Positions 51,693 through 55,637 of a stretch of DNA of 64,000 bases are shown here, piece by piece. Position 1 is the first letter of the stretch, and every line of letters begins with the position of its first letter. Both the position numbers and the translations under genes were made by a program. The notes under the pieces are model-generated. The model saw only the letters and a program-made list of their open reading frames with translations, was not told the origin of the DNA and did not search any database. The DNA is from Thermococcus argininiproducens (lineage in GTDB: Archaea > Methanobacteriota_B > Thermococci > Thermococcales > Thermococcaceae), in assembly GCF_023746595.1 (NCBI RefSeq), contig NZ_CP080572.1, positions 1,596,530-1,660,529 on the forward strand, written 5' to 3'.

Positions 51693-51773
51693 TTATAGAA
51701 TTCTTCACATATTTTTAAAGGTTTTTTCAAAAGACTTTTATTATCAGGTCTCCAGTATCTGATGGTGAAAAAG

Positions 51774-52130
51774 ATGGCAAACAAGCCAAGATACACTATA
51801 AGAGTCTACATGGGAGCAAAAGATAAGTATATTGCTCTAAGCTTGTGGGAAGCCCGCACTGATGAACACGGGAAGTTTAGACCGGCCAACATAAGCATGA
51901 TTATTCATAATGGAGATATTGAAGCAAAAGCCTCCATGAGAACTGAAACCGCTGCCAGATTAGCTGCGGTTCTTTTAAGTATGGTAGCCGAAGCCGAGAA
52001 ATTAACTATGAAAGAAAGGAGGAGAATTAGCATTGAAGAAAGATTTGAAGAACAATTCCTTCTTGAAGATGAGGAGGAAGAAATTCTAGAAAATGTGGAA
52101 GAAATAAAAGCAACTGTTAATGAGGAGTGA
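51774..52130 (+). CDS. hypothetical protein coupled to radical SAM gene
   Basis: A 118-residue protein from ATG 51774 (MANKPRYTIRVYMGAKDKYI) with a GGTGA upstream. It has a beta-rich first half and a helical, very acidic C-terminus with a run of Glu residues (EDEEEEILENVEEIK). It is of unknown family; it might bind a nucleic acid or the neighbouring enzyme. Its end overlaps the radical SAM frame (GAGTGATTC), so the two are translationally coupled. Confidence 0.65.
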   Translation: MANKPRYTIRVYMGAKDKYIALSLWEARTDEHGKFRPANISMIIHNGDIEAKASMRTETAARLAAVLLSMVAEAEKLTMKERRRISIEERFEEQFLLEDEEEEILENVEEIKATVNEE

Positions 52131-52135
52131 TTCAT

Positions 52136-52963
52136 GTGAAAAAGCTTAAAGTTTATATTCCTGGAATCTCCTTTCCCTCTCTTTCACTTACGGGAAATTA
52201 CTGCACACTAAACTGTGCTCATTGTGGAAAGCACTATCTTGAGAGTATGAAAAAAGTTGAAAAATCAAACCTTGTAGAGTACTGTAAGAACCTAGAAAAA
52301 GAAGGATACAAAGGGTGTCTCTTAAGCGGGGGAATGGATTCAAGACTAAAAGTACCTTTAGACATGTACGCCAATGAGATAAAGAAAATAAAAAAAGAAA
52401 CAAAGCTCAAGCTCAATGCTCATGTGGGGTTCATCGATGAAAGTGACTTAGAGTGGTTAAAATACGTTGATGTGGTTTCTCTAGATTTTGTTGGGGAAGA
52501 TGATGTCATCAAAAGAGTGTACAAAATCAAGAAACGAGTTGAAGATTACCTTGGAATAATTGAGCTATTGACATCAAATGGAATTAAAGTTGCCCCCCAT
52601 ATAACAGTGGGTCTTGATTTTGGGAAAATTTGGTGGGAGTACAAAGCTATTGAATTACTTGCCCACTATCCTGTTGATGTTCTTGTTCTTGATGTTCTAA
52701 TCCCTACTAGAGGTACTGAAATGGAAAACACAATCCCCCCTTCTGTAGATAAATCCTTAGAAGTTGTTAAATATGCACGGGACACGTTCAATGGAGAGCT
52801 AAGCATTGGATGCATGAGGCCCCTTGGGAAATGGCGTTTAGAATTCGACAGGGGAGCCATATTAATAGGGGTTGACCGAATAACAAATCCACCAAGAAAA
52901 ATTATTGAATGGGCAAAGAAAATAAGGGATATTGAAATTATCTATGAATGTTGTGTCATGTAA
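52136..52963 (+). CDS. radical SAM protein of the BioB/LipS-like type
   Basis: About 275 residues if translation begins at GTG 52136 behind GAGTGAT (a GTG at 52127 would add three). The cluster motif is CTLNCAHC (Cx3Cx2C), with a GG motif LLSGGMDSR and a TIM-barrel with MRPLGKWRLEFDRGAIL. The C-terminus ends in ECCVM, an unusual vicinal Cys pair. The organisation recalls biotin-synthase-like enzymes, including the archaeal lipoyl synthase LipS2 group, but I am not sure. It is paired with the preceding small gene. Confidence 0.75.
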   Translation: MKKLKVYIPGISFPSLSLTGNYCTLNCAHCGKHYLESMKKVEKSNLVEYCKNLEKEGYKGCLLSGGMDSRLKVPLDMYANEIKKIKKETKLKLNAHVGFIDESDLEWLKYVDVVSLDFVGEDDVIKRVYKIKKRVEDYLGIIELLTSNGIKVAPHITVGLDFGKIWWEYKAIELLAHYPVDVLVLDVLIPTRGTEMENTIPPSVDKSLEVVKYARDTFNGELSIGCMRPLGKWRLEFDRGAILIGVDRITNPPRKIIEWAKKIRDIEIIYECCVM

Positions 52964-53891: not shown

Positions 53892-53988
53892 TTTGCCCTC
53901 CCGAGGGAATTAAAGGATAGGGATTTTAAAGCCTTTGGGTGAAAAGCCTAAAAGAGATTAGTACCAAAATCCAGCAGAGGTGACGAAG

Positions 53989-54648
53989 ATGAACATTGCC
54001 AAATATATCGACCATACAAACCTAAAATCTTATGCAACTAAGGAAGATATAATAAAACTATGTGAAGAAGCGAAGAAGTATGGATTTTATGCAGTCTGTG
54101 TAAATCCATATAGAGTAAAACTAGCAAAAGAGCACCTCAAGGGCACAGATATTAAGGTAGCAAGTGTAATAGGGTTCCCTCTAGGAGCAACACCCACAGA
54201 AGTAAAGGTTTTTGAAGCAAAAAAAGCTCTCGAAAATGGAGCAGATGAGCTTGACATGGTAATCAACATTGGAGCATTAAAGGATAAAGACTACGAATAT
54301 GTCAAGAAGGATATAGAGGACGTTGTTAAAGTAGCACATGAAAATGGAGCAATAGTCAAAGTAATTATTGAGACATGCTATTTAACTGAGGAAGAAAAGG
54401 AGATTGCATGCAAACTTGCCGTGGAAGCTGGAGCTGATTTTGTTAAGACTTCAACCGGTTTTGGAACTGGTGGAGCTACTATTGAAGATGTAAAACTAAT
54501 GCGCAAAATAGTTGGAGAAAAAGTAGGTGTCAAAGCAGCAGGGGGCATAAGAACTTACAAACAGGCCATAGAAATGATACGAGCAGGGGCAAATAGAATA
54601 GGTACTTCAAGTGGTGTAAAAATTGTCGAAGGGGCAAGAAATGAGTGA
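53989..54648 (+). CDS. deoC: deoxyribose-phosphate aldolase
   Basis: A 219-residue class I aldolase (TIM barrel) that cleaves 2-deoxyribose-5-phosphate to acetaldehyde and glyceraldehyde-3-phosphate. Motifs: YIDHTNLK at the N-terminus, [11 protein letters not shown], the Schiff-base lysine in [10 protein letters not shown] and KAAGGIRT. The start is ATG 53989 behind GAGGTGA. Its stop overlaps the start of the following A-domain gene (ATGA type), so the enzyme and the small shell-like protein are translationally coupled. DeoC is a known candidate cargo of family 4 encapsulins. Confidence 0.95.
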
Positions 54649-54928
54649 ACTTTTAAGACTTTTAACAACTGTTATAAGAGAAATAGAAGAGGATGGTTTT
54701 CAGCCAAAAATCGCATTAGTTGGCCCTAAGTTTGCAGAAAAGGGTATGAAAGAGCTAAAAAATCTCAACTTAAAAGTATATATTGTAGAAGAATTAAACT
54801 GTGATGCAATAATTGGAGACCCACGGTTTATAGGACATCTCCGAAAGGCCTCAAGACGGGTGTCATTGGAACCATTAATGGAAGAAAGAGAGTTCTGGGA
54901 AGAAATGGAAGAAATACAAAAGCTCTAA
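54641..54928 (+). CDS. family 4 (A-domain) encapsulin-like shell protein
   Basis: A 95-residue protein starting [15 protein letters not shown]. It is mixed alpha/beta and resembles the isolated A-domain of HK97-fold shell proteins, as known for family 4 encapsulins of hyperthermophilic archaea: [15 protein letters not shown], a central [16 protein letters not shown] and a closing RRVSLEPL. I recall that surveys place these small genes next to deoC; the gene starts inside the deoC stop. The assignment is from memory plus context. If right, it would form an open or partial shell around the aldolase. Four-base overlap with the convergent gene. Confidence 0.65.
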
Positions 54929-55527
54929 ATTTGGAGAGATACTAATACGTCCTTTATTCTTCTTTTTATAACATGTCCCAAGCCACCGCCAACCACAATA
55001 CCAGTGACTGCTTGGAGAGTATTTCCAGGAATCTCTGCTATGGCTCCGCCCCATCCATAAACGTAGACTTCTACAAAAAAGTAGCCCAGAACCATTAAAC
55101 CTCCACCAAGGATCGTTGCAAGGAGTATTGCGGTAAAATCATCTTTCTTGGAGGTAATATATCCTATAACGAATCCTTCTACACCTTTTATTATCAAAGT
55201 AAATGGTGCCCAGTGAGCATAGCCAGTTATAATGTCTGCCATTGCTGATCCAAAACCGCCGGCAAAGGCTCCTATGGTGGGCCCAAAAAGAACGGCTACC
55301 AACATTACCATGGTATCTCCAATGTTAATGTATCCACTGGTCAAAGGAGTAGGTACTTGAATTGCCATTGTAACCACTGCAACAAGAGCCGCCATTACTC
55401 CAGAAAGTGCCACTCCAACTGCAACCTCAAATACTCTTTTTTTAAGTATGAACAAGTAAGCAAAATAAAGCACTGCCACCGCAATTATAATCCATTTGGC
55501 GTATGGGGCTACTGCCTCAATCGCCAT
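54925..55527 (-). CDS. ECF transporter S component
   Basis: A 200-residue membrane protein with six helices and the ECF S-component look: the early VGVALSGVMAALVAV helix, then GYINIGDTMVMLVAVLFGP and AGGFGSAMADIITGYA, typical of QueT/vitamin S components. The ligand cannot be named with confidence; queuosine-like, thiamine or pantothenate are possible. The start is ATG 55527 behind GAGGTGAT. A palindrome CAAGTTAAAACTTG at 55554-55567 lies in the promoter area. Confidence 0.8.
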   Translation of the reverse strand: MAIEAVAPYAKWIIIAVAVLYFAYLFILKKRVFEVAVGVALSGVMAALVAVVTMAIQVPTPLTSGYINIGDTMVMLVAVLFGPTIGAFAGGFGSAMADIITGYAHWAPFTLIIKGVEGFVIGYITSKKDDFTAILLATILGGGLMVLGYFFVEVYVYGWGGAIAEIPGNTLQAVTGIVVGGGLGHVIKRRIKDVLVSLQI

Positions 55528-55637
55528 TCTCATCACCTCACTTTATTTATTTTTCAAGTTAAAACTTGAGATAAAGGTTTAAAAATTTTTCTCTCAAAAA
55601 CGCAAGAACAGAAAAGCAAAAGAAAAACAAATAGAAA

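What the first reader, a model, noticed from the sequence alone, without database searches (positions are those of the whole stretch)
53989..54928. DeoC aldolase coupled to a small A-domain encapsulin-like shell protein
The aldolase stop overlaps the start of a 95-residue gene that looks like the isolated A-domain of HK97-type shells (GDP and SLEPL segments, VGPKFAEKG). Family 4 encapsulins in hyperthermophilic archaea are small A-domain proteins, reported with cargo enzymes such as DeoC. If so, this is a minimal two-gene nanocompartment concentrating deoxyribose-phosphate turnover. The evidence is similarity from memory plus tight coupling. No targeting peptide is obvious at the DeoC C-terminus (GARNE).
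Basis: partly seen in the sequence, partly recalled or inferred. Interest (0 to 1): 0.85.

Follow-up and report, generated by a model that had tools for sequence, protein, structure and literature searches.

The report
Known DeoC-linked capsid-fragment protein (Family 4B)
In this heat-loving archaeon a sugar-phosphate enzyme gene overlaps a small gene for a piece of virus-capsid fold; the pair was described in 2021, no shell has been shown, and some relatives keep one partner without the other.

Summary
Window 53989-54648 is deoC. It overlaps by 8 nt a 95-residue gene (54641-54928) that NCBIfam calls 'family 4B encapsulin' (130.7 bits, cut-off 90) and Pfam ENCP4. An AlphaFold model matches only the A-domain of HK97 capsids and encapsulins (2pk8 Z 10.7, encapsulins up to Z 8.5). 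Andreas & Giessen 2021 (PMC8346489) already described such DeoC operons in Thermococcales, so the system is known. No shell has been shown; a 2025 paper says Family 4 lacks experimental validation.

New here is how loose the pairing is. In 74 measured pairs the genes are adjacent, 71 overlapping. But of 74 good genomes, 5 keep deoC without 4B and 8 (genus g3) keep 4B without deoC. In g3, 7 of 8 have GAPDH directly upstream, and all 8 the same convergent transporter gene downstream. On the stem of the window's genus 4B changed by about 1.1 substitutions per site, DeoC by under 0.01; yet the window copy is under purifying selection (dN/dS 0.04). I favour a small accessory protein over a DeoC-specific closed compartment.

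The parts
53977..53983 (+). Shine-Dalgarno sequence GAGGTGA of deoC (contains the GTG that the ORF listing took as start)
   Evidence: read directly; archaeal SD consensus from general knowledge
53989..54648 (+). deoC, deoxyribose-phosphate aldolase, 219 aa
   Evidence: TIGR00126 300.5 bits, cut-off 117.3; PF01791 80.5 bits, cut-off 23.8
54641..54648 (+). 8-nt overlap (ATGAGTGA) of the deoC end and the 4B start; translational coupling inferred
   Evidence: 71 of 74 measured related pairs overlap
54641..54928 (+). Family 4B A-domain encapsulin-like protein, 95 aa
   Evidence: NF041191.2 130.7 bits, cut-off 90; PF08967.16 71.6 bits, cut-off 31.4; AF2 model pLDDT 88.8 matching HK97 A-domains
54869..54925 (+). 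4B-specific C-terminal tail (residues 77-95), predicted helix of low confidence, beyond the PF08967 match, which ends at residue 78
   Evidence: H77-94, block pLDDT 64 and 62; PF08967 stretch 1-78; E82 74 of 75 and W86 74 of 75 rows outside the window's genus
54925..55536 (-). convergent downstream neighbour, ECF riboflavin-type S component; its stop overlaps the 4B stop by 4 nt; positional marker shared with the GAPDH-linked 4B of genus g3
   Evidence: PF07155 128 bits, cut-off 26.7; synteny

Best explanation
The window holds a deoC gene and, overlapping its end, a Family 4B A-domain encapsulin-like gene: an HK97 capsid A-domain with the rest of the capsid protein missing, plus a 4B-specific C-terminal helix. 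Shown: family membership, the A-domain fold (by model), the overlap, purifying selection, and the pattern of losses and partner exchange. Inferred: the two are translated from one mRNA by coupling. Inferred, and my commitment on mechanism: 4B works as a small accessory protein, probably oligomeric, that docks on a co-expressed enzyme through its body and/or the conserved tail (E77, P78, E82, W86), and stabilises or tunes it. It is not a closed, DeoC-dedicated shell. It is optional for DeoC and can be coupled to another enzyme (GAPDH in genus g3); both enzymes handle glyceraldehyde-3-phosphate.
For: Membership. Fold: AF2 pLDDT 88.8, pTM 0.75; 2pk8 Z 10.7 over 76 residues, encapsulins up to Z 8.5, HK97 1ohg Z 7.6. 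Only the A-domain is present: the protein is 95 aa and nearly all rows align residues 1 to about 80. Adjacency in 74 of 74 measured pairs. Purifying selection: dN/dS 0.04 for the window against G079 and G084. Dispensable to DeoC: 5 of 74 good genomes have deoC without a 4B match (G074, G076, G078, G087, G093), with clear remains in G078 and G087. The tree needs 6 changes for 7 deoC-bearing genomes without intact 4B. DeoC of those 7 stays close to the rest (0-6 departures at 146 conserved columns). 4B without deoC: g3, 8 of 8 good genomes, GAPDH immediately upstream in 7 of 8. Stem of the window's genus: 4B 1.06-1.10 substitutions per site, DeoC 0.000-0.007, GAPDH 0.024. A stable complex of GAPDH with its 4B in P. 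furiosus is reported in PMC8346489 citing Menon 2009, which I could not read.
Against: My searches found no experiment on a 4B/DeoC pair. The near-constant overlap of deoC and 4B outside g3 argues for co-production in step, which a real DeoC complex would explain. 4B and DeoC rates covary weakly and positively (relative-rate Spearman 0.36, p 0.023), though 4B covaries more with the ECF-S neighbour (0.67). DeoCs without 4B depart slightly more often from columns conserved in DeoCs with 4B (mean 2.7 against 1.1; the columns were chosen on the latter set, which biases this), and G074 and G085 share L45F at a column that is L in 72 of 72. The tail's docking role rests on conservation and low pLDDT alone.
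Confidence: 0.5

Rival explanations
1. 4B self-assembles from pentamers into a closed shell that encapsulates DeoC (one possibility raised in PMC8346489, and the first reader's).
For: HK97 A-domain fold; the two main A-domain helices form the contacts within pentameric facets (stated in PMC8346489, section 10); tight deoC coupling.
Against: P-domain and E-loop, which make inter-capsomer contacts in HK97 shells (general knowledge), are absent. 2PK8 crystallised as a dimer (PMC8346489; its authors suspect the tag). No conserved C-terminal peptide on DeoC. DeoC persists after repeated 4B loss. Families 3 and 4 'currently lack experimental validation' (PMC12140327).
Confidence: 0.2
2. 4B acts on a target other than its operon neighbour (for example GAPDH in all Thermococcaceae); deoC merely lends its promoter and coupling.
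For: 4B persists without deoC in g3, and in G012 with a permease gene between it and GAPDH; a GAPDH match is found in 88 of 94 genomes; a GAPDH complex is reported for P. furiosus (PMC8346489).
Against: deoC adjacency is kept in 74 of 74 measured pairs over four genera. GAPDH hardly changes on the window genus's stem, where 4B changed most (0.024). 4B and GAPDH rates do not covary (0.07, p 0.66).
Confidence: 0.24
3. In the window's genus 4B is a decaying gene without function.
For: In g1, 5 of 12 genomes with deoC lack an intact 4B (G074, G076, G078, and the drafts G083 and G085); residues conserved elsewhere are replaced.
Against: dN/dS 0.04 between the window and G079 or G084; four replacements at otherwise conserved columns are shared by all 7 intact g1 copies; the reading frame is intact.
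Confidence: 0.04

Closest known systems
Family 4B A-domain encapsulin, DeoC operon type (Andreas & Giessen 2021, PMC8346489)
   Same: An A-domain protein of about 95 residues directly downstream of deoC in Thermococcales; scored over the cut-off of the NCBI 4B model.
   Different: The window's genus carries a divergent subclade: L15I, D23K/R, S61P and Q66H in 7 of 7, at columns at least 95% conserved in 75 other rows. The genus also shows repeated loss of the gene.
Family 4B, GAPDH operon type (genus g3)
   Same: Homologous 4B (45-48% identity to the window) with the same convergent ECF-S neighbour downstream.
   Different: The upstream enzyme is GAPDH, with a 64-68 nt gap in L091-L093 by subtraction from the ORF ends, instead of an overlapping deoC. 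In G012 a permease gene lies between.
Family 4A, PF0899 / PDB 2PK8
   Same: Same A-domain fold (Z 10.7, 28% identity over 76 residues).
   Different: The window scores only 28.8 bits on encap_f4a, cut-off 90. The genome's OsmC-linked 4A copy ends with the A-domain (PF08967 match 6-97 of 98 aa), without the 4B tail.
Classical (Family 1) encapsulins, e.g. T. maritima 3DKT, M. xanthus EncA
   Same: A-domain fold, residues 1 to about 75 (Z 7.0-8.5).
   Different: No P-domain, E-loop or N-terminal cargo-binding helix; no C-terminal targeting peptide seen on the enzyme.

Membership tests
Family 4B A-domain encapsulin (PF08967 / NF041191) | Scores over the curated family cut-off | tested here: met
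   NF041191.2 130.7 vs 90; PF08967.16 71.6 vs 31.4
Family 4B A-domain encapsulin (PF08967 / NF041191) | HK97 A-domain fold without the other HK97 domains, about 100 aa | tested here: met
   AF2 model and VIA-align: residues 1 to about 78 match A-domains; 95 aa in all
Family 4B A-domain encapsulin (PF08967 / NF041191) | Located downstream of DeoC or GAPDH | tested here: met
   8-nt overlap with deoC; 74 of 74 measured pairs adjacent
Encapsulin nanocompartment (functional sense) | Self-assembly into a closed icosahedral shell | not testable with these tools
   No assembly prediction available; papers state no experimental characterisation of Family 4 (passages)
Encapsulin nanocompartment (functional sense) | Dedicated cargo-loading peptide on the enzyme | tested here: inconclusive
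   C-terminal tails of 72 DeoCs are short and variable and look alike with and without 4B; N-termini were not compared systematically, and a docking surface inside the fold is not excluded
Encapsulin nanocompartment (functional sense) | Full HK97 protomer (A-domain, P-domain, E-loop) | tested here: not met
   95 aa, A-domain only
DeoC (TIGR00126) | Equivalog model over cut-off | tested here: met
   300.5 bits vs 117.3

The most novel reading that the evidence does not exclude
4B is a domesticated capsid fragment that works without any shell, as an exchangeable accessory subunit of glyceraldehyde-3-phosphate-handling enzymes: DeoC in most genera, GAPDH in the Pyrococcus-like genus g3 after deoC was lost and an intervening permease gene was deleted. 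In the window's genus it was rebuilt in a burst of substitution with almost no matching change in DeoC, and is being discarded in sister species.
Probability: 0.35. Interest if true: 0.62.

Novelty: already known. Interest (0 to 1): 0.33.

Why it matters
Pfam ('putative') and NCBIfam name Family 4 proteins as encapsulin shell proteins, while the papers I saw say there is no experiment behind the name. The comparison here gives a cheap natural experiment: close relatives with deoC and 4B, with deoC and a lost or broken 4B, and Pyrococcus-like species with 4B and no deoC. It predicts that DeoC works normally without 4B, and it says which residues (tail E77, P78, E82, W86; window-genus changes D23K, S61P, Q66H) to test for binding. 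If 4B proves shell-less, it is a clear case of a capsid domain turned into an enzyme subunit, and the family name should change.

Tried and rejected
1) Internal stops in 4B of seven genomes (G019, G021, G033, G042, G051, G056, G068), flagged, are an artefact: the alignment ran upstream of the true start; all seven frames read through.

2) A TrmBL1-type link between the deoC and GAPDH contexts: the consensus I recalled (TATCAC-N5-GTGATA) gives 30 sites in the window at up to 3 mismatches against 26.1 expected. The one nearest the deoC start (53819) has 3 mismatches; not pursued. In P. furiosus TrmBL1 binds upstream of gapdh PF1874, listed as a singleton (PMC4706686, passages).

3) Viral or plasmid kin: no relative in IMG/VR (3 pattern matches, none confirmed), in phages or plasmids. 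PHROG 20192 'tail assembly chaperone', E 0.00056, was left as weak. In BFVD many of the 50 rows shown are major capsid proteins, but 0 of 282 matches reach E 0.001. In PDB Foldseek gives only 2pk8 at E 0.001 or better; HK97-type rows start at E 0.017, and non-HK97 rows (7vai_J at rank 2, 5b0o, 3v6i, 8om1) lie among them. The HK97 reading therefore leans on VIA-align, the family models and the published 2PK8 comparison.

4) A DeoC-4B complex model: I read the window as one fused chain with a four-letter code word, but MAFFT laid the 4B rows on the DeoC part, so I did not fold it. The second prediction job was not used.

5) Rate covariation as a partner test is ambiguous: 4B with ECF-S 0.67, with DeoC 0.36, with GAPDH 0.07; DeoC with GAPDH 0.61. 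Branches are few, and inner and tip branches behave differently, so I give it little weight. In the 4B tree the branch between genus g2 and the rest is also long (0.22 + 0.22).

6) Rows dropped: G078 and G083 (broken) were left out of the 4B alignment. The trees use hand-picked rows with all genes (22 and 21); G003 and G064, without a GAPDH match, were dropped and G001 added. Two partial DeoCs (G057, G062) were dropped. G035 was never extracted. The drafts G010, G046, G053 and G081 lack a 4B match, and G010, G046 and G081 a deoC match too; none counts as a loss. G053 has only part of deoC.

Full report
WHAT IS THERE. Window 53989-54648 (+) encodes DeoC (219 aa; TIGR00126 300.5 bits). Its last eight bases are also the start of a 95-aa gene, 54641-54928 (+). 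deoC has a clear Shine-Dalgarno sequence (GAGGTGA, 53977-53983). The second gene has none as good by eye, so translational coupling is likely (inference). Downstream a convergent gene for an ECF riboflavin-type S component (54925-55536, -; PF07155 128 bits) overlaps the end of the second gene by 4 nt.

MEMBERSHIP. The 95-mer is a Family 4B encapsulin by the NCBI model (130.7 bits, cut-off 90) and not 4A (28.8 bits); Pfam agrees (ENCP4, 71.6 bits, cut-off 31.4). By sequence the only PDB chain under E 0.001 is 2PK8 (E 0.00066). An AlphaFold2 model from 22 related sequences has mean pLDDT 88.8 and pTM 0.75, with order H-E-H-E-E-E-H. VIA-align gives 2pk8 Z 10.7 (1.8 A, 76 residues), then encapsulins up to Z 8.5 and HK97 capsid 1ohg Z 7.6. 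Nearly all of the 50 rows align residues 1 to about 80; two phage capsids align to residue 95 at rmsd 4.8-5.8. The tool warns that Z under 8 may mean only a common arrangement; here the 50 rows shown are 2pk8, encapsulins, HK97-type capsids and phage-related proteins, and two curated sequence models agree. By Foldseek alone only 2pk8 passes E 0.001. Residues 77-94 form an extra helix of low confidence (block pLDDT 64 and 62) outside the A-domain.

ALREADY PUBLISHED. Andreas & Giessen 2021 (PMC8346489; I read the outline, part 1 of section 10 and passages found by term) define Family 4 as truncated A-domain proteins, say that Pyrococcus and Thermococcus species generally have one 4A and one 4B operon, and place DeoC and GAPDH operons in 4B, hydrogenase and OsmC operons in 4A. 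They call assembly a hypothesis. A 2024 review (PMC11202242, passages) and a 2025 paper (PMC12140327, passages) say Families 3 and 4 lack experimental characterisation or validation; a 2025 review calls the function of Family 4 a subject of speculation (PMC12360286, passage). My paper searches listed no experimental paper on 4B; the library holds open-licence PMC papers only.

DISTRIBUTION. ENCP4 matches 92 of 94 genomes of the family and 0 of 21 other genomes of the class. All 23 loci found in genome contigs are metagenome assemblies named Thermococcus, Thermococcaceae or Thermococci. The window's genome has two copies: this one, and a 4A-like copy directly downstream of osmC (L101).

IS DEOC REALLY THE PARTNER? 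Among 74 genomes at least 90% complete and at most 5% contaminated, 69 have a 4B match and 66 have deoC. By subtraction 61 have both, 5 deoC only (G074, G076, G078, G087, G093), 8 4B only (g3). All 74 extracted pairs are adjacent, 71 with overlap (overlap depends on the start codon chosen). So the linkage is strong where both exist, yet each survives without the other.

LOSS IN PLACE. In the deoC-only genomes deoC runs straight into the same ECF-S gene. G078 (one contig) keeps a scar: an early stop, a missing middle and a readable C-terminal part. G087 keeps the last codons (KRKEVWEEI, then stop). G074, G076 and the draft G085 show only short end-like traces, read by eye, and G093 none. The draft G083 has an internal deletion, which could be an assembly fault. 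On a DeoC+ECF-S tree of 89 rows the fewest changes for the 7 genomes without intact 4B is 6; one fork there is open, so 5 is possible. The losses lie in genera g1, g5 and g6; none of the 58 g4 rows in that tree lacks 4B. DeoC stays close to the rest: at 146 columns conserved in 72 DeoCs with 4B, the seven depart at 0-6 places (mean 2.7), the 72 at mean 1.1, maximum 6. Since the columns were chosen on the 72, I read no clear shift; the shared L45F of G074 and G085 is the one to watch.

PARTNER EXCHANGE. In genus g3, Pyrococcus-like (organism name inferred, not looked up), no deoC is found in 9 of 9 genomes. 4B is found in 8 of 9 (the ninth, G010, is a draft). All 8 keep a convergent ECF-S gene downstream of 4B (49-54% identity to the window's), and in 7 of 8 GAPDH is the next gene upstream. 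In the eighth, G012, the first branch of g3 (support 100 for g3, 98 for the rest), an amino-acid-permease gene on the other strand lies between GAPDH and 4B. The same permease (68% identity), convergent with GAPDH and with no 4B nearby, is found at 3 of 3 inspected GAPDH loci of genus g5 (G086, G087, G091), and at 0 of 5 inspected loci of other non-g3 genomes (G000, G002, G017, G075, G077). The simplest history, inferred: deoC was lost, the 4B/ECF-S block came to lie beside permease and GAPDH, then the permease was deleted. So the GAPDH-4B operon is probably derived and may be partly accidental.

A BURST OF CHANGE IN THE WINDOW'S GENUS. With branch lengths fitted on one fixed topology, the stem of genus g1 is the longest 4B branch (1.10 substitutions per site, next 0.46; 1.06, next 0.87), while DeoC has 0.007 and 0.000, GAPDH 0.024 (only) and ECF-S 0.31-0.33. 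Of 23 4B columns at least 95% conserved in 75 other rows, 4 are changed in all 7 g1 copies (L15I, D23K/R, S61P, Q66H); the same test gives 1 of 19 for g2, 0 of 19 for g3 and 0 of 20 for g5, and for DeoC of g1 0 of 147. Afterwards the gene settled: dN/dS 0.04 for the window against G079 and G084. If 4B were locked to a DeoC surface, some answering change in DeoC would be expected; there is almost none. This does not exclude docking on an invariant DeoC surface.

MECHANISM. I favour an exchangeable accessory protein over a shell (confidence 0.5). For it: only the A-domain is present; no C-terminal loading peptide is visible; dispensability and partner exchange; a reported stable GAPDH-4B complex in P. 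furiosus (PMC8346489 citing Menon 2009, not held). The best docking candidate is the 4B-specific tail: of 75 rows outside g1 (67 DeoC-linked, 8 g3), E77 is kept in 69, P78 in 71, E82 in 74 and W86 in 74. Against it: the near-constant overlap with deoC, the weak positive DeoC rate covariation (0.36), and the lack of any experiment that I could find.

VERDICT. Observation confirmed; interpretation partly supported; system already known. The added value is the decoupling evidence and a set of natural 4B-less and deoC-less relatives that make the open shell question testable.

Noticed in passing
L101:5052-5769 (G000:C1, about 1,291,050-1,291,770): The genome's second Family 4 gene is a 4A-like copy directly downstream of osmC (PF02566 64.4 bits; ENCP4 106.7 bits).
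   Followed up: partly
L095 (G012), L155 (G091), L156 (G086), L168 (G087): A Trp/Tyr-permease-family gene convergent with GAPDH is shared by G012 and three genus-g5 genomes; it suggests how the GAPDH-4B operon of genus g3 arose by deletion.
   Followed up: yes
window 51762-52130 (+): A 122-aa ORF without a Pfam match at E 0.001 overlaps by 4 nt the start of a radical SAM gene (52127-52963); possibly a coupled pair.
   Followed up: no
L073 (G074), deoC from 1501: After loss of 4B, DeoC of G074 reads on about 10 residues further (229 aa, ending SQKEIESSKEN), a possible trace of the former overlap.
   Followed up: no
L087, L053, L099, L100, L102 (G033, G020, G051, G056, G073); L098, L103, L096, L097 (G021, G030, G042, G068): In some g4 genomes the gene downstream of 4B gives no ECF-S match, or a distant one (23-29% identity), so the downstream neighbour has been replaced or has diverged there.
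   Followed up: no
BFVD entry A0A6J7VQR9: A 95-residue uncharacterised Caudovirales phage protein matches the model over 93 alignment columns (TM 0.58 both ways, E 0.086): perhaps a free-standing A-domain-like protein in a phage.
   Followed up: no
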